A stretch of 64,000 bases of DNA from Erysipelotrichales bacterium (GTDB lineage Bacteria > Bacillota_I > Bacilli_A > Erysipelotrichales > Erysipelotrichaceae): the NCBI GenBank assembly GCA_910575705.1, contig CAJTFG010000002.1, positions 310,001 to 374,000 on the forward strand. Reading direction: 5' to 3'. Positions 19,966-29,759 of the stretch are shown here, piece by piece (within the stretch, counting starts at the first letter, position 1; the number at the start of each line of letters is the position of its first letter). The translations under genes were made by a program, and so were the position numbers. Below the pieces are notes generated by a model. It was not told the DNA's origin, searched no databases, and saw only the letters and a list, made by a program, of their open reading frames with translations.

Positions 19966-20003
19966 TTGATAATATGCTATAAATATATTATAATTATGCT
20001 ATA
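19966..20003 (+). promoter_or_regulatory. XRE-gene promoter flanked by 9-bp direct repeats
   Basis: TTGATA (19966-19971), a 17-base spacer and TATAAT (19989-19994) form a near-consensus promoter. TATGCTATA occurs at 19973-19981 and again at 19995-20003, 22 bases (two helical turns) apart, one copy in the spacer and one just after the -10. This arrangement suits autorepression by the adjacent XRE protein. Confidence 0.6.
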
Positions 20004-20024: not shown

Positions 20025-20246
20025 TTGAATTTTGCTGAAGATATTAAGAAACTTCGTAGAAAGTTGCTTTTAAGCCAAGAGGATTTTGCTAATGAATTAG
20101 GAATTTCATATGCAACTGTTAATAGATGGGAAACCGGAAAAAGCAAGCCTACCTATAAAAATATGAAATTAATTGATGAATATTGTAAGAAAAATTCAAT
20201 TGATTTTGATATAGCGAATGAAATTCTGGAGGACGAAAATGATTAA
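20025..20246 (+). CDS. Small XRE-family regulator
   Basis: This 73-residue protein is almost entirely one HTH_3 domain: KLRRKLLLSQEDFANELGIS then YATVNRWETGKSKPTYKN (residues 5-48). It starts at a TTG ten bases after GGGAGG. It overlaps the methyltransferase start by eight bases, so the two are translated together. Small XRE proteins next to restriction-modification methyltransferases often act as controllers; here the repeats at its own promoter and the palindromes before the downstream operon are the candidate targets. Confidence 0.85.
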   Translation: MNFAEDIKKLRRKLLLSQEDFANELGISYATVNRWETGKSKPTYKNMKLIDEYCKKNSIDFDIANEILEDEND

Positions 20247-21333
20247 AGTAGCAACTGTATTCAGTGGTATAGGTGCTCCTGAAGAAGCATTAAAACAGTT
20301 GAATATTGATTTTGATATTGTTTTTGCTTGTGATAATGGAGAGCGAGAAATTGAAAAGACTTATGAAGAGATATTAGAAGAAACAAAAGAAATGACTTCT
20401 GATGAACGGGTTTCATTTGTAAATGGTTTATATAAATTAACTAATAAGGAAAATTTTGTAAAAAAGTCATATTTTGCAAACAATAAAATATCAAATGATA
20501 AGTGGTACGAAGATGTTAGATTTATAGATGGTAAAAAGTATAAAAATTCTATAGATTTGCTTATTGGTGGTAGTCCGTGTCAAAGTTTTTCAACATTTGG
20601 TAAAAAGAAAGGATTTGAAGATACAAGAGGAACATTATTTTTTCACTATGCAAATTTAATTAAAGAAATTAGACCATCAGTATTTATTTACGAAAATGTA
20701 GTTGGATTAAAAACACATAATGGTGGAAACATATGGAAAAGAATTCAAGAGGTTTTTGATGAATTAGAATATAATGTATTTGATTTTGAATTAAATGCAA
20801 AAGATTACGGATTACCACAATTAAGAAATCGTGTGTTTGTAGTTGGCTTTAAAAACGAAATGAATGTAGATAAATTTGATGAACCAGAAAAAGTTGAACT
20901 AAAAAAGTTTGCCACAGATTATTTGTCAAATAAAGTTGACTTAAAGTATTATATGGGGAAGAAAGGATTTGAATGGGTAACTACACCAGAAAAACACCAA
21001 AGCAGATCAAGAGTAAATCGTGATATCATAGGGTGTCAAACTGCTAATCAACAATTTAATTGGATAGGAGATTTTAGAATAGAATCACCTACTGATGAAA
21101 TGCGAAATAATGAAAAAATACACATTGGTTTGTATGATGGAAAAGAATCTGTTGCAAGAAAACTAACTCCTGAAGAATGCCTTAAACTTATGGGGTTTGA
21201 AAATTTTCATATTGTTGTTGATGATAAAAATGCTTATAGGCAAAGCGGGAACTCAATTGCAGTACCAGTTTTGAAGGCATTATTGAAAAATGTAGTTAAA
21301 ATTATTGAAGATTATAACGAAAGGAATGATTAA
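20239..21333 (+). CDS. dcm: DNA (cytosine-5-)-methyltransferase
   Basis: A 364-residue m5C methyltransferase with all key motifs: the SAM-binding start VATVFSGIGAPEEAL, the catalytic GGSPCQSFSTFG (Cys114), YENVVGL (ENV, 152-154), the QLRNR arginine motif near 194-198, a target-recognition region of about 100 residues and motif X (RQSGNSIAVPVL). The ATG at 20239 follows GGAGGAC; an earlier in-frame start would run into the XRE gene. The target sequence cannot be read from the gene. Its transcript ends at the hairpin overlapping the stop codon, separating it from the GHKL operon. Confidence 0.93.
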   Translation: MIKVATVFSGIGAPEEALKQLNIDFDIVFACDNGEREIEKTYEEILEETKEMTSDERVSFVNGLYKLTNKENFVKKSYFANNKISNDKWYEDVRFIDGKKYKNSIDLLIGGSPCQSFSTFGKKKGFEDTRGTLFFHYANLIKEIRPSVFIYENVVGLKTHNGGNIWKRIQEVFDELEYNVFDFELNAKDYGLPQLRNRVFVVGFKNEMNVDKFDEPEKVELKKFATDYLSNKVDLKYYMGKKGFEWVTTPEKHQSRSRVNRDIIGCQTANQQFNWIGDFRIESPTDEMRNNEKIHIGLYDGKESVARKLTPEECLKLMGFENFHIVVDDKNAYRQSGNSIAVPVLKALLKNVVKIIEDYNERND

Positions 21334-21353
21334 TTTAATCGTTCCTTTTTTTT
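21320..21353 (+). terminator. Terminator at the end of the methyltransferase gene
   Basis: AAAGGAATGATTA pairs with TAATCGTTCCTTT (one GU) and is followed by a T run. The 5' arm includes the last codons and stop of the methyltransferase. Confidence 0.8.
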
Positions 21354-21386
21354 GTTAGTTGTAACAAATCAAGAGTGCATATTCAA

Positions 21387-21439
21387 AATGTTGCAATATT
21401 CAAAAATCTATTGACAAATATTGCAATATTTATTATATT
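21387..21439 (+). promoter_or_regulatory. Consensus promoter with two palindromic operator-like sites
   Basis: TTGACA (21411-21416), a 17-base spacer and TATATT (21434-21439). The perfect 14-base palindrome AATATTGCAATATT fills 21417-21430 inside the spacer. An imperfect copy, AATGTTGCAATATT, lies at 21387-21400, 30 bases upstream. A dimeric regulator on the spacer site would directly compete with RNA polymerase. The XRE protein is the obvious but unproven candidate. Confidence 0.65.
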
Positions 21440-21481
21440 TTGTTTGTAAGAACTGATAAAATCGAAAGGAAAATCGCTATT

Positions 21482-21697
21482 ATGGAGAGTAAAAGGGAAA
21501 AATTTGTAAGATTAGCAGAAACCAGAACAAATAAAATTATTGATATGATTAGATTGCTTGGAAATTGTGCAAATAAAGCAAATTATGATTATTCAGAGGC
21601 AGATGTTCAAAAAATATTCAGTGCTATAGAAAAAGAAATAAAAACAGCAAAAACGAAGTTTTTCATAAATGAAGTTGAAGATAAATTTAAGTTATAG
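21482..21697 (+). CDS. Small helical protein of the methyltransferase/GHKL module
   Basis: A 71-residue, strongly charged protein (MESKREKFVRLAETRTNKII, then DMIRLLGNCANKANYDYSEADVQKIFSAIEKEIKTAKTKF). It appears all-helical, with no membrane segment and no catalytic motif. The ATG at 21482 follows GAAAGGAAA; a frame-open TTG at 21440 overlaps the promoter and is rejected. It is the first gene after the palindrome-bearing promoter, 17 bases before the ATPase gene. I do not know its function; a DNA-binding or adaptor role is possible. Confidence 0.75.
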   Translation: MESKREKFVRLAETRTNKIIDMIRLLGNCANKANYDYSEADVQKIFSAIEKEIKTAKTKFFINEVEDKFKL

Positions 21698-21714
21698 TCT
21701 AAAATCAAGGAGAG

Positions 21715-23610
21715 ATGAAATTGGAGAAATATTCATGGAAGTTTCCGTCTTATGAGGGTCCTGGTGACCAAGGAATAAATGATGGCGGAATATCAATGTT
21801 TAAAGGTTCGCAACTGTATAACAGTTTAGCACGAGAAATTTGTCAAAATTCACTTGATGCTAAGGCAGACGGAGAAAATACAGTTATTGTAAAATTTAAA
21901 TGTACAACACTAAATAAAAAAGATTATCCTTCTCTTTCGGGATTAGTAGAGGTTTTCAAGGAATGTCGAGTATCATGGGCAAAAAGAATGAACACAAAAT
22001 TGCAGAATTTTTTGGATGATGCAGATAATGTTCTTTCTAATAATGATATTGATTGTTTAATAATTAGTGATTCAAATACTACTGGTTTGAGTGGTGTAAA
22101 AAAACCTGAGGATGAACGCTCTAAATGGAGGGCATTAACAAGTTCTGATGGTGTTACAGATAAAGATGATGGTAGTGGTGGCTCATATGGTATTGGAAAA
22201 AGTGCGCCATTTGCATGTTCTTCCTTAAGAACTGTATTTTATAACACTTATGCCAAAGAGGATGGCATTAAAGCTTTTCAAGGTGTTGCGAGATTAGTTT
22301 CGCATAACCATAATGGGAAAAAGACACTAGGAACAGGCTTTTATTTGAATAACGAAACATGGGATCCTATATTTGATACTGAAAAATGTTTACTTAGAGA
22401 TTTAATCAATAGAAAAGAATATGGAACCGACGTAGTTATTGCGGGATTTAAAAAGACTGCTACATGGGATGAAGATATTGAAAAAGCAGTAATTCAAAAC
22501 TTCTTTGTAGCAATTGCAAAAAATGAACTAATTGTAGAAATAAATGATATTAGATTGGATAGTAACACTTTACATAGTAGAATTGAATTCTATGCTGATA
22601 AAGAAGTTGAAAGTAAAAATAAGCCTATAACGACTATTCTCGAATTCTATCATACAATTATTGAACAAGATCATCTTGTTATCAAAGGTTCCATAATGGA
22701 AAAAGAGGATGTAACTCTTTATATAAGAAAAGACGAAAATTATAGTATGTCTATTGTTGAAATGCGTTCAATTGGAATGGTTGTTAGAAAAAGGCGTAAA
22801 AGCCTACTTTCTCATTATGCTGCAGTTATGATTGTTAATGAAGGAAAACTAAATAATTTACTTAAAAATATAGAACCTCCAAAGCATGATGAATGGGATC
22901 CAGGTATATTGGATGATGAAGAGGAAAAGAAACAAGCAACTAAATATAAAAGACAATTATTCAAATGGGTCAATGATACCATCATAAAGAATTGTAGAAG
23001 CGAAGAAACTGATGAATTGGACTTAGATGGAGTAAGTGCATATCTCCCGTTTGATGAAACAGATGAGTCTTTAGGAGTTGAAGAAAAAGAAGATATCTCT
23101 CCGGATTCAGATCCAAAAGTAGGAGAACCAAAAAAAACTAGACCCAATGTGAGGAAGATTACAATATCTGCTAAAAAGGTTAAAGGTATTAAAGACGAGA
23201 AAAACGATCCACATAATGAAACTGAAGGTGGTAATGGAAGAGGACGTTCAGGGGGAATAAAAGATCCTAGTGGAAAAGATGATGTTATATCTCCAACTGA
23301 TGGGAATAAAACACTGAATATTCCTAAGGTTTTACAGCAGAGAATAGTTCAAATGCCTGCAGATTCTTCATATAGAGTTGCTTTTATCCTTGAAAACGAT
23401 TGTAAGGATGTTAACATTGAATTGAAAGCAGTTGGAGATGATAGAAAAAAAGAAAAAGTTAATATTATTGATTATAAAATCGGAAAATTTAAAACAAATA
23501 TAAATTCTAAAACTATTACTTTACATAATATCAAAGCTAATGAAAAAAATGAAATTTTTTTAACTTTAGAATATTCTGAAAAAATGGCTTTGCAATTACT
23601 TATTTTTTAG
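21715..23610 (+). CDS. GHKL (MutL/Hsp90/MORC-like) ATPase of a putative defence operon
   Basis: A 631-residue protein with a Bergerat ATP-binding fold at the N-terminus. The N-box is LAREICQNSLDAK (E41, N45, D48), the second motif IISDSNTTGL (D119, G124) and the glycine lid GGSYGIGKSAPF (155-166). A middle domain follows. Then comes a charged, low-complexity linker of about residues 465-540 (DPKVGEPKKTRP, GGNGRGRSGGIKDP) and a C-terminal domain (QRIVQMPADSSYRVAFILEN). The N-terminal motifs resemble the paraMORC ATPases described in bacterial modification systems. Such ATPases act as ATP-gated clamps; no nuclease motif is visible. The ATG at 21715 is only two bases from AAGGAG, so the TTG at 21721 (spacing eight) may be the real start. 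Confidence 0.8.
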   Translation: MKLEKYSWKFPSYEGPGDQGINDGGISMFKGSQLYNSLAREICQNSLDAKADGENTVIVKFKCTTLNKKDYPSLSGLVEVFKECRVSWAKRMNTKLQNFLDDADNVLSNNDIDCLIISDSNTTGLSGVKKPEDERSKWRALTSSDGVTDKDDGSGGSYGIGKSAPFACSSLRTVFYNTYAKEDGIKAFQGVARLVSHNHNGKKTLGTGFYLNNETWDPIFDTEKCLLRDLINRKEYGTDVVIAGFKKTATWDEDIEKAVIQNFFVAIAKNELIVEINDIRLDSNTLHSRIEFYADKEVESKNKPITTILEFYHTIIEQDHLVIKGSIMEKEDVTLYIRKDENYSMSIVEMRSIGMVVRKRRKSLLSHYAAVMIVNEGKLNNLLKNIEPPKHDEWDPGILDDEEEKKQATKYKRQLFKWVNDTIIKNCRSEETDELDLDGVSAYLPFDETDESLGVEEKEDISPDSDPKVGEPKKTRPNVRKITISAKKVKGIKDEKNDPHNETEGGNGRGRSGGIKDPSGKDDVISPTDGNKTLNIPKVLQQRIVQMPADSSYRVAFILENDCKDVNIELKAVGDDRKKEKVNIIDYKIGKFKTNINSKTITLHNIKANEKNEIFLTLEYSEKMALQLLIF

Positions 23611-23627
23611 TTTGGTGGTGTAAAAAC

Positions 23628-24515
23628 TTGAAGAAAACAAATATAAATTATCCGTATCCTGTTTTAAATTCATCTAACGAAGATTATATTGAGTGTTTTT
23701 TCAATATAGTTGGTCCAGATGAAATTACTATGAATGGCGATAACATAGAAATTAAAATTTCCTATAATCTTAAGTCTAATGGATTGGCAGAATTAATCCA
23801 AGAAAACAAGGCAAATGTCGTTCTTTATTGTGAAAGCGTAGAGGCTGAATATAGAAAAATAAAGAAGTTTCCATCTAACTCAAATCAAATAGACTTTACT
23901 ATAAATAAAAACGAAATAAGTAAGAATATTGAAATTAGAGGGTATGTTGTTTCATTAGGCGAAATTTATCCATTTAGATTAGATGAACACAATTATGATT
24001 TATTCGGAGGTGTTCCTTTTAAAATAAGAAAAGGTGATATTCTTGCTATATCAAATGATTTTCTAGTTTATCCTATAAAGTATTATGATCCATTAGCTAA
24101 TAGACCATCAATATTTTCCATACGCAGAGGTAGTAAACCAAATGAAGAAATATATGTTGATATATTTTCGTATGATAAAATTACAGTCTTTTTAAATGAT
24201 GAAATTTATAACAATTATAGTGCGCTATATCAAGAAGCAAAAGTTAGAACAATATTATCATCTATGTTTGCTGCATCTGTTTTAATTGATGTTTTATCAT
24301 ATATCAAAAATAGTCCCGAAGATGATATTGAAGATATTAAAGATAAAAAATGGTATCAAGTTATAAATTCAAGATTAGATACTTTATCGATTGATTTAAA
24401 ATTAGAATCGTCATTAACAAAAGTAGCGAATATGGTGCTTCCTCACATATATAAGGAATTTGTAGATTCCTTTAAAAATGCTTTTGAAAGTTTAATGCCT
24501 GAGGAGGATAACTAA
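23628..24515 (+). CDS. Unknown beta-rich protein in the GHKL operon
   Basis: A 295-residue protein starting at TTG 23628, after GGTGGTG. The first half reads as a strand-rich domain (ITMNGDNIEIKISYNLKSNG, VVLYCESVEAEYRKI, IEIRGYVVSLGEIYPFRL). The second half is helical (RTILSSMFAASVLIDVLSYI). No signal peptide or known catalytic motif is seen. It lies 17 bases after the ATPase gene and two bases before the next gene, so it is clearly part of the operon. The beta domain could bind DNA or a partner protein; function unknown. Confidence 0.7.
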   Translation: MKKTNINYPYPVLNSSNEDYIECFFNIVGPDEITMNGDNIEIKISYNLKSNGLAELIQENKANVVLYCESVEAEYRKIKKFPSNSNQIDFTINKNEISKNIEIRGYVVSLGEIYPFRLDEHNYDLFGGVPFKIRKGDILAISNDFLVYPIKYYDPLANRPSIFSIRRGSKPNEEIYVDIFSYDKITVFLNDEIYNNYSALYQEAKVRTILSSMFAASVLIDVLSYIKNSPEDDIEDIKDKKWYQVINSRLDTLSIDLKLESSLTKVANMVLPHIYKEFVDSFKNAFESLMPEEDN

Positions 24516-24517
24516 CA

Positions 24518-25270
24518 ATGAAATTAAAATATTTCTCAGAATCAGCATATAATGACTTGTTTGATTGTGTAGATAAAAATGTTGACTATTATAGCGATAT
24601 TGATAATAGTTGGATTGAAAAGAGATTTGACAAAAGAGAATATTCAAAAGAATCTCGTATTGATGTTACACTTCCACAATTATCTATATCCAATAGCGAA
24701 TATATGAATGCCGTAAATATTCATACTGCTTTTAAAGATCGTATTACTCCAAAACAGGCAAGCAATCCATATTTATGGAGTTATCTTTCCCATTGTATAT
24801 ATTGGGAATATACTTGTCAAAGATGGTCTAGTACAAGAATGTCTGTTGATTCAATAAAAGAACATTATTTTTGCAAATCTGAAACCGGAAATAGAATAGG
24901 CTTTTTAAGGAATTCAATATCTAGGCTGTGGTGGATGGCGGAGCTCTCATATCAAGATGACAAATCCAATAGGTATGAATTAACTGAACTTTTATTTTCG
25001 CATTCGGATTTATGTCAAAGCGTTATAGAGCGAAATTTTTCAATGAACAAGGAAGTAATAGTTGGAATTCTAAGTGCAATAAAGGCAATTAACGATGATC
25101 TTGATTTAAAAAATGTTGGTATAGATAAAAATGGAGAGTATGAATGGCGAAATTTATGTAAATACATAAATAGATATGGAGCAGTTACTTTATTAGATGT
25201 ATTAGATCGTGATGATATTAGAGAAATTTCTTATAAGTATATTTTAGAACAACGAAAAATAGGAGAATAA
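24518..25270 (+). CDS. DUF6339-like protein in the GHKL operon
   Basis: A 250-residue soluble protein. The start MKLKYFSESAYNDLFDCVDK and the central aromatic block ASNPYLWSYLSHCIYWEYT followed by RNSISRLWWMAEL resemble my recollection of DUF6339, a family of unknown function found near methyltransferases and paraMORC ATPases. I hold this match loosely. No nuclease (PD-D/ExK, HNH) motif is evident. It is packed two bases after the previous gene and one base before the next. Confidence 0.6.
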   Translation: MKLKYFSESAYNDLFDCVDKNVDYYSDIDNSWIEKRFDKREYSKESRIDVTLPQLSISNSEYMNAVNIHTAFKDRITPKQASNPYLWSYLSHCIYWEYTCQRWSSTRMSVDSIKEHYFCKSETGNRIGFLRNSISRLWWMAELSYQDDKSNRYELTELLFSHSDLCQSVIERNFSMNKEVIVGILSAIKAINDDLDLKNVGIDKNGEYEWRNLCKYINRYGAVTLLDVLDRDDIREISYKYILEQRKIGE

Positions 25271-25271
25271 T

Positions 25272-25706
25272 ATGGAAATAAACTACAAACAGAGATTTGA
25301 AGATCGAAGAGCAATTAACAAAATGCTTGGTAGTGATATTGTAAAAGGTATTTCTTTAACGAAAAAAGCTGATGCAATTGTATTAATTATGAATGACGAA
25401 GAGTTGTATTCAGATTATTTCTATCCCAAGAATACATATGATTATTGTATGTACACAGGTATAGGTAGATATGGTCATCAAGATAGTATAAACAATAATA
25501 TGTACTCCCGAAATATGGATGTTTTGACGCATAAGAAAGATAAACGAACATTGCTTGTATTTGATAAAGATGAAAATAATTATATCTTTGCAGGACAATA
25601 TGAATTAATTGAAACACATCAAAATGTTCAACCAGACAAAAAGGACGAATTACGAAGAGTTTTTGTTTTTCATTTAAAACAAATATCAAAAACATACAGT
25701 TTCTAA
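25272..25706 (+). CDS. Possible stand-alone SRA-like (ScoMcrA-type) DNA-reader domain
   Basis: A 144-residue protein whose second half carries the spaced pattern YTGIGRYGHQD, then an asparagine-rich stretch, LLVFDKDENNYIFAGQYEL, QPDKKDELRRVFVFHL. It is like the modified-base-reading wing or SRA-type domain found N-terminal to HNH nucleases of the ScoMcrA group. Here that domain stands alone, without any HNH or PD-(D/E)xK part. It is the last gene of the operon and begins one base after the DUF6339-like gene (AGGAG overlaps that stop). Reading the partner methyltransferase's m5C, or its absence, is a plausible role but is inference. Confidence 0.6.
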   Translation: MEINYKQRFEDRRAINKMLGSDIVKGISLTKKADAIVLIMNDEELYSDYFYPKNTYDYCMYTGIGRYGHQDSINNNMYSRNMDVLTHKKDKRTLLVFDKDENNYIFAGQYELIETHQNVQPDKKDELRRVFVFHLKQISKTYSF

Positions 25707-25769: not shown

Positions 25770-26040
25770 GATATTATGATAATATATGTTTCAAGAATTA
25801 TTAATAAATAACCCGATATGTTAATCTTGATACTATTTTGATAGTAAAAATTCCGATAAACAAAAATACAACAATAAAAACGAAATAATATAGATATTAA
25901 ATCAAACTGAATCTAAACAAATAAGTTTAATATTTATTTGAATTAGGCGAGTGGAAATAGTATCAAACGGTTAAAGGGGCTGTTAAGAAATAGAGATAAA
26001 AAATCTAGGGCTTAATAGTCCTTTTTTTGATATAAATAAG

Positions 26041-26077
26041 AAAAGTGCCTAAGGAATCGAACCTATTGGGCACTTTT
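26041..26077 (+). terminator. Hairpin inside the IS left end
   Basis: AAAAGTGCC pairs with GGGCACTTTT around an 18-base loop, followed by further T. It lies between the left repeat and the transposase start and would block transcription entering from outside, a common protective feature of insertion sequences. Confidence 0.6.
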
Positions 26078-26109
26078 TGATATAATTGTCTTGTTCGGAG
26101 ACATATATC

Positions 26110-27777
26110 ATGAATTATTTTACTACAAGACAATCTTTTTTTCTATACTCCTACGACATAGATGTCAAGGAAAAGGAAAAATTAGATCTTTTTTTAAAAC
26201 TATTGGATAAAGCAAATCTATATGAAGTAATACGCCCTTCATTGGAAAAAACAAATTATCAAGGGCGTAATCGTATTCAACCATGTAACATGCTGGCAAC
26301 CATATTGTATGCCTTTATGATAGACAATGGGCATCTGCGAGAAATAGAAAGATCCTGTAAAATTAGTTTGGATTACATGTATCTTATGAATGGAGAAAAA
26401 GCAAGTTATGTAACTTTTTCAAACTTTATAAATGACATAATCTTGTCCAATATTTTTGAAATATTCAAAAGGATCAATCAAGCACTCATTTCAGAAATAG
26501 GTTTTGATATAAGTGATATATTTATTGACGGCTCAAAATTTGAAGCTAATTCAAACAAATATAAATTTGTATGGAAGCCTACTAAAAAATTAAAGAGATT
26601 AGAAAATGAAATAAAGGAATTACTGAGCCAATACAGTATCAAACCTCAAACGATAGATATGGCTTCGCTATCTGAATCGATAAATAAATTGAATGAATTA
26701 TCTTTGAAAAGCAATATTGGTCTAAAGAAAACGTTGCGAGGGAAAGGAAGAAAATTAACTCAAATACAAAAAGATTATTTCAAACTTTTAGAATATGTAC
26801 CGAAATTATTGAAATATCACGAGCAGATTAGAATATGTGGAGAAAATAGAAATTCCTATTATAAGAGCGACCATGATGCAACGGCTATGTGTCTGAAGGA
26901 AGACTATTACTCAGGATTAGGAAGCAATATGCACGCAGCATACAATGTACAGTTTATAGTAGCAAAAGGCTTTATATTAGGGGTTTATGTAAGCCAAGAT
27001 CGAACGGATTATATGACTTTGAGCCCCTGCTTAGAGCAATTCAAGACATTTTATGGAACATACCCTAAGAATGTATGTGCTGATGCAGGATACGGGAGCT
27101 ATGATAATTATAAGCACATTGAAAGTAAATATATCGGCAATTATATAAAATACCCTTCTTGGCAAGGAGAAAGAAAAGGAACAAGTCCGCAGTTATTTAG
27201 GGAAGAAGAGGAAAAGATTCTGTGTTTAAATAATCGGGTAGGAGAAAAGATTGAAATGAAAAATCGACACCCGCAAAAAAAAGAAGCATTCATTTATAGA
27301 TTCACAGGATGTAGGAAGTGTAAATATAAGGCAATATGTAAGAAGAGAACTAAGAAGAAAACAGAGCCCTTTAGAATAGCAGAGATATGTCCTGATTATT
27401 TAAAGTTTATAGAGATCGTAAGAGAAAATCTACTTTCGCCTAAAGGAATAGAACTAAGGGTAAACAGATCCATACAAGCAGAAGGTGATTTTGGAAACAT
27501 GAAACAGAATCTATCGTATAATCGGTTTAGAAGAAGAGGAAAAAATAAAGTAACAATGGAGATCATATTAATGTCAATCGGCATTAATATAAGAAAATAT
27601 TTAAGATTTAAAGCGACAGGGGAATTACCAAAATTTTGGATAGCACCAGATAATTTACAGTCTGAGGGCAAACCCAAAATCAAGATACCAAAATCGACAA
27701 ACAAGAAAACAAAAGCAGTGAACCAGCTATCTAAAGATTCTCATAAATATCAAAGAAAAAGGACCATTAAGTCCTAG
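26110..27777 (+). CDS. tnp: IS1182-family DDE transposase
   Basis: A 555-residue transposase. The N-terminal domain (NRIQPCNMLATILYAFMIDN, YLMNGEKASYVTFSNFI) is typical of the IS1182 group. The first catalytic Asp lies in DIFIDGSKFEAN, the second in NVCADAGYGSYDNY, and the glutamate probably in SIQAEGDFGNMKQN. A four-cysteine zinc patch (CRKCKYKAICKK) precedes it. The ATG at 26110 follows CGGAG; eight codons of open frame upstream lack a site. The frame is intact. Confidence 0.9.
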   Translation: MNYFTTRQSFFLYSYDIDVKEKEKLDLFLKLLDKANLYEVIRPSLEKTNYQGRNRIQPCNMLATILYAFMIDNGHLREIERSCKISLDYMYLMNGEKASYVTFSNFINDIILSNIFEIFKRINQALISEIGFDISDIFIDGSKFEANSNKYKFVWKPTKKLKRLENEIKELLSQYSIKPQTIDMASLSESINKLNELSLKSNIGLKKTLRGKGRKLTQIQKDYFKLLEYVPKLLKYHEQIRICGENRNSYYKSDHDATAMCLKEDYYSGLGSNMHAAYNVQFIVAKGFILGVYVSQDRTDYMTLSPCLEQFKTFYGTYPKNVCADAGYGSYDNYKHIESKYIGNYIKYPSWQGERKGTSPQLFREEEEKILCLNNRVGEKIEMKNRHPQKKEAFIYRFTGCRKCKYKAICKKRTKKKTEPFRIAEICPDYLKFIEIVRENLLSPKGIELRVNRSIQAEGDFGNMKQNLSYNRFRRRGKNKVTMEIILMSIGINIRKYLRFKATGELPKFWIAPDNLQSEGKPKIKIPKSTNKKTKAVNQLSKDSHKYQRKRTIKS

Positions 27778-27810
27778 ATTTTTTATCTCTATTTCTTAAC
27801 AGCCCCTTTA

Positions 27811-28357
27811 AATTATTATTGTTTTCTATTTCCCAAAAATAAAAAATTTAGATAAACTCATCAATGTAATGGGAACACCAGATATTAAAATAATTACTGG
27901 TGTAAGGCGTAGTGGGAAATCGAAATTACTTGAAAGTTTTAAAGAATATATTTTAAAAAATGCTGCTGATACTAATATAATTCATATTAATTTTAATATA
28001 ACCAAGTTTGAAAATTTAAAAGAATATCATGCATTGGAAAATTATATAGAAAATGCGTATATTTATGGCAAAGAAAATATTGTGGCAATTGAATTATTGC
28101 GTAGGGGATATGAAGTTTATGTAGGAGTTCTTTATAAAAAAGAAGTGGATTTTGTTGCAATCAAACGAAATGAAAAGATTTATATTCAAGTTTTAGATAA
28201 TATTAGTGATGACAAGACTTTTGAAAGAGAAGTTAGTCCTTTATTGAAGATTAACGATGCCTATCCAAAAATGGTTATAGCAAGGATAAGACATGAAGAA
28301 TATCAATATGAAGGTGTTAGAATGGTTGATATTTCAGATTGGCTAATGAATGAGTAA
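27811..28357 (+). pseudogene. Internally deleted AAA/DUF4143 ATPase
   Basis: From 27869 the frame gives GTPDIKIITGVRRSGKSKLL, the Walker A of the AAA_14/DUF4143 ATPase family. It then jumps after about 65 residues to KENIVAIELLRRGYEVYVGV, then KEVDFVAI, the C-terminal DUF4143 nuclease-fold end. The middle (Walker B to early DUF4143, normally over 200 residues) is missing without a frameshift. In-frame codons continue upstream (LDKLINV) past the ATG to near the IS right end, so the true 5' end was probably lost to the IS insertion. Confidence 0.8.
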
Positions 28358-28469: not shown

Positions 28470-29759
28470 AGGTAGTGTGTAAAAGATTGTGTAAACCTTC
28501 AAAAGTAGTATGATAAACATATGAAATTGGAGGTTTTTCTAATGAACAAAAGAAAAGAATTAATAAAAGAACTAATGAAAGAATTTGAGTTAAAAGATAC
28601 CAATGATATTTCAAACATGTTTCGTGAATTGATGGGCAGCACCATTCAAGAAATGATTTCTCTGAAAAAAGTATGAGAAGCGAATATGGCGATGTAACTG
28701 TCAAGATCCCAAGAGATCGTATGGGTGAATTTGAACCACAGGTCGTTAAAAAATATCAGAAGGATCTAGGTTCAATCGAACATCAAATCATCACTTTATA
28801 TGCCAAAGGTATGAGTAACAGAGAGATTGAGGATTTCATAAAAAACATGTATGGCGCTGAGGTATCACCTTCTTTAATATCACGTATTACCGATCGTATA
28901 CTGCCGGAAATCAGAGAATGGCAAAACAGACCGCTAAAGCGTTTGTATGCGATGGTATTCATGAATGCGATATATTATCATGTGCGTAAAGAAGGAAGTA
29001 TCGTAAACAAAGCAGTATATATCGCTATCGGCATTGACATGAGCGGATGTAAAGATGTATTGGGGTTGTATATCGGCGAAGTTGAAACTAGTAAATTCTG
29101 GTTAAGTGTAATGAATGAACTTAAAAACAGAGGGATGGAAGATATCCTAATTTGTTCTGTAGATGGCTTAAATGGATTCTCACAAGCGATTACAGCAGTA
29201 TATCCACAGACGATCGTACAACGTTGTATCGTCCATCAAATCCGCAACAGCACACGTTATGTGAGCTATAAAGATATCAAGGAGTTTATGAGGGATCTTA
29301 AAAGTGTATATCAAGCAGCGACCTTGGATTTGGCGGAATATAATTTAGATAAAGTAGAGGAGAAATGGAAGGAAAAATATCCAAGCAGTATCAAATCATG
29401 GAGAGAGAACTGGACAGAATTAAGTGTATATTTTGTTTATCCGCAAGCGATACGAAAAATGATTTATACCACAAATTCAATTGAGAATTTCAATCGGCAA
29501 TTACGAAAAGTGACAAAAACGAAATCGAGTTATCCAAGTGATGAAGCCTTATTGAAATCACTGTACTTGGCAATCTTGGATATCACTAAGAAATGGACGG
29601 GAACACCGCATAACTGGATGAGCATCGCCAATCAGTTGATGATTTATTTCGAGGGGAGGATTGTCAATGATGACCTAATCGTTTAAAATAATGAAAAAGC
29701 GGCTACTACTTCCGATTCTTCCTAACATTTACGGTTTACACAAAAAATGAAACACTCTC
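28470..29759. mobile_element. Degenerate IS256-type element
   Basis: The left repeat GGTAGTGTGTAAAAGATTGT begins at 28470 and ends TGTGTAAACC at 28496. The complement of the right repeat (29733-29759) matches 19 of 27 positions, including the inner TTGTGTAAACC. Flanks AAATTTTA and AAATTTAT could be an eroded eight-base target duplication. The transposase inside is broken, so the element is immobile on its own. Confidence 0.78.
28542..29686 (+). pseudogene. Disabled IS256-family transposase
   Basis: The start (MNKRKELIKELMKEFELKDT, GSTIQEMISLKK) ends in a stop at about 28676. The remainder opens in another frame at 28673 with MRSEYGDVTVKIPRDRMGEF. A normal IS256 transposase has roughly 30-40 residues between these parts, so a frame-changing deletion has occurred. 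The first catalytic aspartate also appears mutated: AMVFMNAIYYHVR has Asn where the family has Asp. The second (SVDGLNGF) and the glutamate (NSIENFNRQLRK) remain. It is dead by two independent lesions. Confidence 0.85.

What the first reader, a model, noticed from the sequence alone, without database searches (positions are those of the whole stretch)
20025..25706. Candidate defence system: XRE-m5C methyltransferase cassette plus a five-gene GHKL-ATPase operon without a recognisable nuclease
Seen: an intact m5C methyltransferase coupled to an XRE gene, then five genes (71 aa helical, 631 aa GHKL ATPase, 295 aa beta-rich, 250 aa DUF6339-like, 144 aa SRA-like) spaced 17, 17, 2 and 1 bases. All are far more AT-rich than the flanks. 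Known: GHKL ATPases of the paraMORC type occur with restriction-modification genes, but usually with a Z1 or helicase/nuclease partner. Inference: methylation marks self, the SRA-like protein reads the mark or its absence, and the ATPase clamp assembles an effector. The effector activity must be hidden in an unknown protein.
Basis: partly seen in the sequence, partly recalled or inferred. Interest (0 to 1): 0.85.

Follow-up and report, generated by a model that had tools for sequence, protein, structure and literature searches.

The report
Restriction-linked MORC-like ATPase operon
This is a mobile bacterial gene cluster pairing a DNA-methylating enzyme with an ATP-driven clamp-like protein and helper proteins, a family already on lists of suspected virus-defence systems, but in a version that carries a probable methylation-reading protein where its relatives carry a DNA-cutting enzyme.

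Summary
In detail: seven genes at 20025-25706, gaps 17/17/2/1, 26-32% GC against 44-46% in neighbouring genes. The system is not new in kind. The ATPase, the 295 aa and the 250 aa proteins are PADLOC candidate system PDC-M33 (A, B, C). The ATPase also carries the ExxxH signature of the paraMORC2 family described in 2008. In 46 loci the core recurs as (71 aa)-A-B-C, and 26 have a DNA methyltransferase within four genes. The partner methyltransferase (m5C or m6A) and nuclease (MutH/Sau3AI, EcoRII, AlwI, HNH, NgoFVII-like, Vsr) are exchangeable. B and C show no nuclease signature, so the 'effector hidden in an unknown protein' idea is not supported; the nuclease is normally a separate gene, and here none is linked. 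The 144 aa protein matches the SRA-like reader half of SRA-HNH endonucleases, without the HNH half. Best explanation: an ATP-driven MutL-like module coupling methylation sensing to restriction, in a version whose nuclease is lost, unlinked or unnecessary. New here: the 71 aa gene tracks methyltransferase-linked versions, and a reader matched to the local mark adjoins or is fused to C. Defence activity is untested.

The parts
19966..19994 (+). promoter-like site of the XRE-methyltransferase unit, -10 flanked by two TATGCTATA repeats (19973, 19995) that could be the XRE operator
   Evidence: consensus 11/12, repeats; function inferred; the region total of promoter-like sites does not exceed shuffles
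20025..20246 (+). XRE/HTH_3 regulator, 73 aa
   Evidence: PF01381 E 5e-14
20218..21333 (+). m5C DNA methyltransferase (likely start ATG 20239, about 364 aa)
   Evidence: PF00145 E 5.1e-66; the only m5C methyltransferase found in this genome
21319..21349 (+). terminator-like hairpin after the methyltransferase
21411..21439 (+). promoter-like site of the core operon with the palindrome ATATTGCAATAT (21418-21429) between -35 and -10
   Evidence: function inferred
21482..21697 (+). 71 aa helical protein, restriction-modification-linked small family
   Evidence: 24-61% identical to the other aligned copies, L048 being the divergent one; 16 of 16 full-flank loci with it have a DNA methyltransferase within four genes
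21715..23610 (+). GHKL ATPase, paraMORC2 / PDC-M33A, 631 aa
   Evidence: PDLC04582 E 2e-152; invariant E41, D48, D119, G124, G159, G161 and ExxxH E387/H391
23628..24515 (+). PDC-M33B, 295 aa: FnIII-like beta-sandwich plus helical C-terminus, probable adaptor
   Evidence: PDLC04583 E 4e-53; AF2 pLDDT 75, Foldseek FnIII-like, weak
24518..25270 (+). PDC-M33C / DUF6339, 250 aa, all-helical, probable adaptor
   Evidence: PF19866 E 1e-46, PDLC04586 E 9e-55, AF2 pLDDT 64; no fold match
25272..25706 (+). 144 aa SRA-like reader domain without the HNH nuclease half
   Evidence: tblastn to HNH endonucleases E 1e-3 to 8e-3, alignment with YTGxGxxGxQ motif, relative hits SAD_SRA

Best explanation
The locus is a laterally acquired, restriction-modification-linked paraMORC2 (PDC-M33) module. 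Shown: an XRE-linked m5C methyltransferase, followed by an operon with its own promoter-like site encoding a small helical protein, a GHKL ATPase, two conserved non-enzymatic-looking partners (B, C) and an SRA-like domain protein. Inferred mechanism: the methyltransferase marks host DNA. The ATPase, like MutL, closes on DNA as an ATP-gated dimeric clamp, with B and C as scaffold subunits that carry it to or from sites according to methylation state. The SRA-like protein, encoded directly after C, reads (hemi)methylated cytosine. In most relatives the clamp then recruits or licenses a separate restriction nuclease (MutH/Sau3AI, EcoRII, AlwI, HNH types). Here that nuclease is not linked: it is either lost, with the SRA gene the surviving reader half of an SRA-HNH enzyme, or supplied from elsewhere in the genome.
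For: PDC-M33A/B/C matches. paraMORC2 signature ExxxH in 24/24 homologues and invariant GHKL motifs (definition from PMC2292703). Core order conserved in genomes, plasmids and viral contigs from Bacillota, Deinococcota and Actinomycetota. DNA methyltransferase within four genes in 26 of 46 loci, and in 20 of 28 with full flanks; methyltransferases are 29 of 297 near genes versus 3 of 259 farther genes. Exchangeable nucleases: MutH plus HNH plus Vsr (L027), HNH (L029, L051), NgoFVII-like (L092), EcoRII (L099), AlwI (L050, L094), Sau3AI (L047). Mark-matched readers: C fused to DpnI_C beside an m6A methyltransferase in L029; SRA gene beside an m5C methyltransferase here. B and C lack a conserved acidic/His constellation and are modelled as beta-sandwich/helical proteins.
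Against: No experiment on PDC-M33 was found in the searched papers. Eight full-flank core loci have no methyltransferase recognised nearby, so the link to restriction is not obligatory. The SRA identification is transitive and its partners elsewhere are SRA-HNH enzymes not linked to this core. No linked nuclease was found here, so 'couples to restriction' rests on relatives. AF2 models used only 7 sequences.
Confidence: 0.6

Rival explanations
1. Decayed restriction-modification island: the restriction gene was lost, the SRA gene is a truncated SRA-HNH enzyme, and what remains is an orphan methyltransferase with a non-functional accessory module, held beside two insertion sequences.
For: No linked nuclease; the 144 aa protein ends where the SRA part ends, HNH half missing; IS1182 and IS256-like transposase genes and an AAA-family fragment immediately downstream. 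The nearest methyltransferase relatives sit in a locus with two methyltransferases and two further genes that look like an McrB/McrC pair (L108), absent here (although that negative had no positive control).
Against: All seven ORFs are intact with tight spacing and plausible ribosome-binding sites, and all GHKL motifs are kept. No HNH remnant in the 260 bp after the gene.
Confidence: 0.25
2. Nuclease-free, methylation-guided silencing or abortive module: the paraMORC clamp with its SRA reader traps or compacts DNA rather than cutting it, as proposed for eukaryotic MORC proteins.
For: Core-only A-B-C loci without a recognised methyltransferase or nuclease nearby (L030, L031, L033, L034, from one genus); no linked nuclease here; the GHKL clamp and m5C reader parallel eukaryotic MORC contexts discussed in PMC2292703.
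Against: Many relatives with a methyltransferase also carry a nuclease; neighbours of the core-only loci were not all annotated and nucleases may be unlinked.
Confidence: 0.12

Closest known systems
PADLOC PDC-M33 (candidate phage defence system, A+B+C)
   Same: A, B and C all match the three models over nearly full length
   Different: PADLOC has no model matching the 71 aa protein or the SRA protein; the XRE-m5C cassette is outside the three M33 models
paraMORC2 family of Iyer, Abhiman and Aravind 2008 (PMC2292703)
   Same: GHKL motifs, ExxxH in the S5 part, Gram-positive bias, neighbours with methylases, Vsr and nucleases
   Different: The text read here does not describe the B, C and 71 aa partners (figures not held); an adjacent SRA gene is not mentioned
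MZA (MzaABCDE) and other MORC/paraMORC systems
   Same: GHKL ATPase in a defence operon; some M33 relatives carry a large protein with a sigma-70 region 4 that partly matches MzaA
   Different: No Z1 or AIPR gene in this locus; A does not match a Mza model
SRA-HNH modification-dependent endonucleases (TagI family)
   Same: The 144 aa protein aligns with the N-terminal reader half of HNH enzymes whose HNH half matches TagI
   Different: HNH nuclease half absent; no sequence match of the 144 aa part itself to TagI
Two-methyltransferase McrB/C-like restriction locus (LlaJI-like by recollection), seen as L108
   Same: XRE-like gene followed by m5C methyltransferases 48% and 41% identical to this one
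   Different: Second methyltransferase and the two downstream genes are missing here; the paraMORC2 operon stands in their place

Membership tests
paraMORC2 GHKL ATPases | conserved GHKL ATP-binding motifs | tested here: met
   N box ExxQNSxDA, G1 DxxxTxGL, G2 GSxGIGK; E41, D48, D119, G124, G159, G161 invariant in 24
[quoted passage not shown]
   E387-PPK-H391, invariant in 24/24; definition read
paraMORC2 GHKL ATPases | gene-neighbourhood link to DNA methylases, nucleases, Vsr | tested here: met
   nuclease types
MORC proper | GhXhhpXXRhl motif in the S5 domain | tested here: not met
   window protein reads GMVVRKRRKSL at this place; some relatives come close, e.g. L027 GMRILEQNRIS
PADLOC PDC-M33 | adjacent genes matching M33A, M33B, M33C | tested here: met
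   E 2e-152, 4e-53, 9e-55, adjacent with gaps 17 and 2
PADLOC PDC-M33 | experimentally shown anti-phage activity | not testable with these tools
   PDCs are described as unpublished/unvalidated candidates; no paper names M33
Type II restriction-modification system | DNA methyltransferase | tested here: met
   PF00145
Type II restriction-modification system | cognate restriction endonuclease encoded next to it | tested here: not met
   none among the seven genes in Pfam, NCBIfam, PADLOC, PHROGs
SRA-HNH (type IV) endonuclease | SRA reader domain | tested here: inconclusive
   27-33% identity to SRA-HNH N-termini; one relative hits SAD_SRA 1e-7; window protein itself does not
SRA-HNH (type IV) endonuclease | HNH nuclease domain | tested here: not met
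   protein ends before the HNH half; no remnant downstream
MZA system | Z1, AIPR and MzaA proteins beside the MutL-like ATPase | tested here: not met
   no such genes in 20025-25706

The most novel reading that the evidence does not exclude
The m5C methyltransferase, SRA-like reader and paraMORC2-B-C clamp form a complete, nuclease-free, methylation-guided defence that traps or compacts DNA: a bacterial counterpart of MORC-mediated silencing of methylated DNA in eukaryotes.
Probability: 0.12. Interest if true: 0.85.

Novelty: new variant of a known kind. Interest (0 to 1): 0.42.

Why it matters
paraMORC ATPases were predicted in 2008 to work in restriction, but no mechanistic study of paraMORC2/PDC-M33 was found in the searched papers. 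This locus and its relatives suggest a division of labour: a constant clamp module (71aa-A-B-C), an exchangeable methyltransferase, an exchangeable nuclease, and a reader matched to the mark placed beside or fused to C. That makes testable predictions about how methylation state is passed to a MutL-like ATPase. The nuclease-free version is the natural place to ask whether the clamp alone can block DNA.

Tried and rejected
Effector hidden in B or C: rejected as unsupported (no conserved catalytic set; models). The C model is low in confidence, so this is not a proof. IS1182 insertion truncating the SRA gene: rejected, since the element starts about 265 bp after the stop. Linked HNH remnant: none in three frames to the IS. 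Nuclease in trans: the own genome has no Vsr, one PF01844 HNH in a 228 aa protein and one lone HNH_2 protein of 328 aa at G000:C1 about 525.2 kb with host-like composition; neither shows a link to this locus. Search for the McrB-like L108 protein: empty, but without positive control. Empty-site comparison downstream of aspS: the relatives carry different genes there, so it is uninformative. The search for related loci on genome contigs with single proteins gave nothing, and the DUF6339 alignment was too diverse for a scan. PDB profile searches for A and B were empty; the C hits were two helical-repeat chains named C3HR3 and a weak one, discounted. The weak PHROG and DUF72 hits of the 71 aa protein were disregarded.
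Full report
Check of the observation. The genes are 25.9-31.6% GC with 17-23% GC at third positions, against 44-46% for hisS and aspS next door, in an AT-rich block from about 19.6 to 29.7 kb. The methyltransferase ORF opens at 20218, but ATG 20239 behind GGAGG is the likelier start (read from the sequence). A terminator-like hairpin follows the methyltransferase and a good promoter-like site with a palindrome (ATATTGCAATAT) precedes the 71 aa gene, so the cassette and the core operon are probably two transcription units. Promoter-like sites in the region as a whole are not more frequent than in shuffles, so this is suggestive only.

What the proteins are. Pfam, NCBIfam and PHROGs say little beyond XRE, m5C methyltransferase and DUF6339. 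PADLOC-DB matches the 631, 295 and 250 aa proteins to PDC-M33A, B and C over nearly their whole length (E 2e-152, 4e-53, 9e-55). PDCs are described in papers as unpublished or not yet validated candidates from a guilt-by-embedding screen (PMC11811056, PMC12988326), and no paper in the library mentions M33 or DUF6339. In Iyer et al. [quoted passage not shown] In 24 aligned homologues E387 and H391 are invariant, as are the GHKL box residues. The ATPase is therefore filed as a paraMORC2.

Relatives. A PDC-M33A search found matches in 23 of 392 sampled genomes of the phylum, the last three weak, and a search with the ATPase itself in 14 of 273 of the family. tblastn found 26 plasmid records, from Lactococcus and Ligilactobacillus to Deinococcus, Arthrobacter and haloarchaea, and viral contigs hold eight loci. 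Gene calling on 46 loci shows the order (71 aa)-A-B-C again and again. A recognised DNA methyltransferase lies within four genes in 26 of 46 loci and in 20 of the 28 with full flanks; 29 of 297 genes within four of the core are methyltransferases, against 3 of 259 farther away (Fisher p 5e-6, not corrected for relatedness). The type varies: m5C (13 loci), D12 m6A, N6/N4. The nucleases vary too: MutH/Sau3AI with a broken SRA-like (AspBHI_N)-HNH gene and Vsr in L027, HNH in L029 and L051, Sau3AI-like in L047, AlwI type in L046, L050 and L094, EcoRII in L099, NgoFVII-like in L092, Vsr in several m5C loci.

Two patterns not in the PADLOC models. First, all 16 full-flank loci that contain the 71 aa gene have a methyltransferase nearby, against 4 of 12 without it (counts; Fisher p 1.6e-4; several of the 12 are close relatives, so the p-value overstates the evidence). 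The same small family also stands beside m5C methyltransferase and Vsr without A-B-C in L069, and without either in viral contigs L070 and L071. Second, C carries or adjoins a reader for the local mark: in L029 C is fused to DpnI_C (PF17726 E 7.5e-8) beside an m6A methyltransferase; the DpnI winged helix is a 6mA sensor (PMC11037411 abstract). In this window an SRA-like gene starts one base after C, beside an m5C methyltransferase. Two cases are a lead, not a rule.

The 144 aa protein. Its only relatives found by tblastn in plasmids are N-terminal halves of HNH endonucleases from Priestia, Tepidibacter and Halobacterium (E 1e-3 to 8e-3). They share YTGxGxxG(H/D)Q and further positions along the whole 144 aa. 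The Halobacterium one matches SAD_SRA (PF02182, 1e-7) over this part, and the HNH halves match TagI (6ghc, E 7e-21 to 1.5e-27). So it is most likely an SRA-like reader without its nuclease. No HNH remnant follows it.

Is there an effector in the core? B models as an FnIII-like sandwich with a second beta part and a helical C-terminus (pLDDT 75; best Foldseek E 1.6e-3, so the fold label is weak). C is all-helical (pLDDT 64, no match). Among 21 B and 19 C sequences the strongly conserved positions are mainly aromatic, aliphatic, Pro, Arg and Trp, with single acidic positions (E69 in B, D227 in C) and no set resembling a nuclease site. With nucleases found as separate genes in the relatives, B and C are better read as adaptors. 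A catalytic role is not excluded.

Where is the nuclease here? None is linked. The genome has no Vsr, one m5C methyltransferase (this one), one weak HNH protein elsewhere and one lone HNH_2 protein of 328 aa in ordinary surroundings. The nearest methyltransferase relatives (48% and 41%) lie in L108 behind an XRE-like gene and ahead of two genes that look like an McrB/McrC pair (the family call and the LlaJI comparison are from my knowledge). The XRE-methyltransferase cassette may therefore descend from another kind of restriction system and have been joined to a paraMORC2 operon.

Mechanism. Shown: gene content, families, conservation of ATPase motifs, recurrent linkage. Inferred from GHKL biology (MutL clamps that recruit MutH and Vsr; the looping proposal of Iyer et al.): an ATP-gated clamp with B and C as scaffold, loaded according to methylation state, which licenses a separate nuclease in most relatives. 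What the SRA-like protein does with a mark that the host itself makes is open: it could sense hemimethylation, exempt self DNA, or detect other modified cytosines.

Verdict. Real, well-formed, probably mobile, and a variant of a known candidate class. The interesting residue is the nuclease-less, reader-bearing form.

Noticed in passing
window 25971-27811: IS1182-family element with 74-bp terminal inverted repeats (86% complementary) and what looks like a TTAA target, inserted about 265 bp after the SRA gene.
   Followed up: partly
window 28521-29686: IS256-like transposase (my reading of the sequence, no family scan) split into a 51 aa and a 337 aa ORF in different frames; probably a frameshifted copy.
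   Followed up: no
window 27869-28357; L101:1031-1177: 162 aa fragment that seems to join a P-loop start to the tail of an AAA-type ATPase (my reading; no family hit); another fragment 63% identical lies on contig C3 of the same genome.
   Followed up: no
L069:7995-8222, L070:7048-7278, L071:7983-8213: The 71 aa family also occurs in viral contigs without the ATPase core, once beside m5C methyltransferase and Vsr and followed by an 822 aa protein of unknown family.
   Followed up: partly
L032:5910-8720, L038, L040, L092, L094, L095, L096: Large 780-936 aa protein related by sequence to one with a sigma-70 region 4 (in L094 also an RNA polymerase alpha C-terminal domain) beside many M33 cores; it partly matches MzaA.
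   Followed up: partly
L027:7232-8266: SRA-like (AspBHI_N)-HNH endonuclease gene interrupted by an in-frame stop between reader and nuclease, a boundary comparable to the one at which the window's SRA gene ends.
   Followed up: no
L042-L045: Divergent A-B-C subfamily without the 71 aa gene; the C of L045 has no Pfam hit. Neighbours include AIPR (L043) and GmrSD-like (L044) genes.
   Followed up: no
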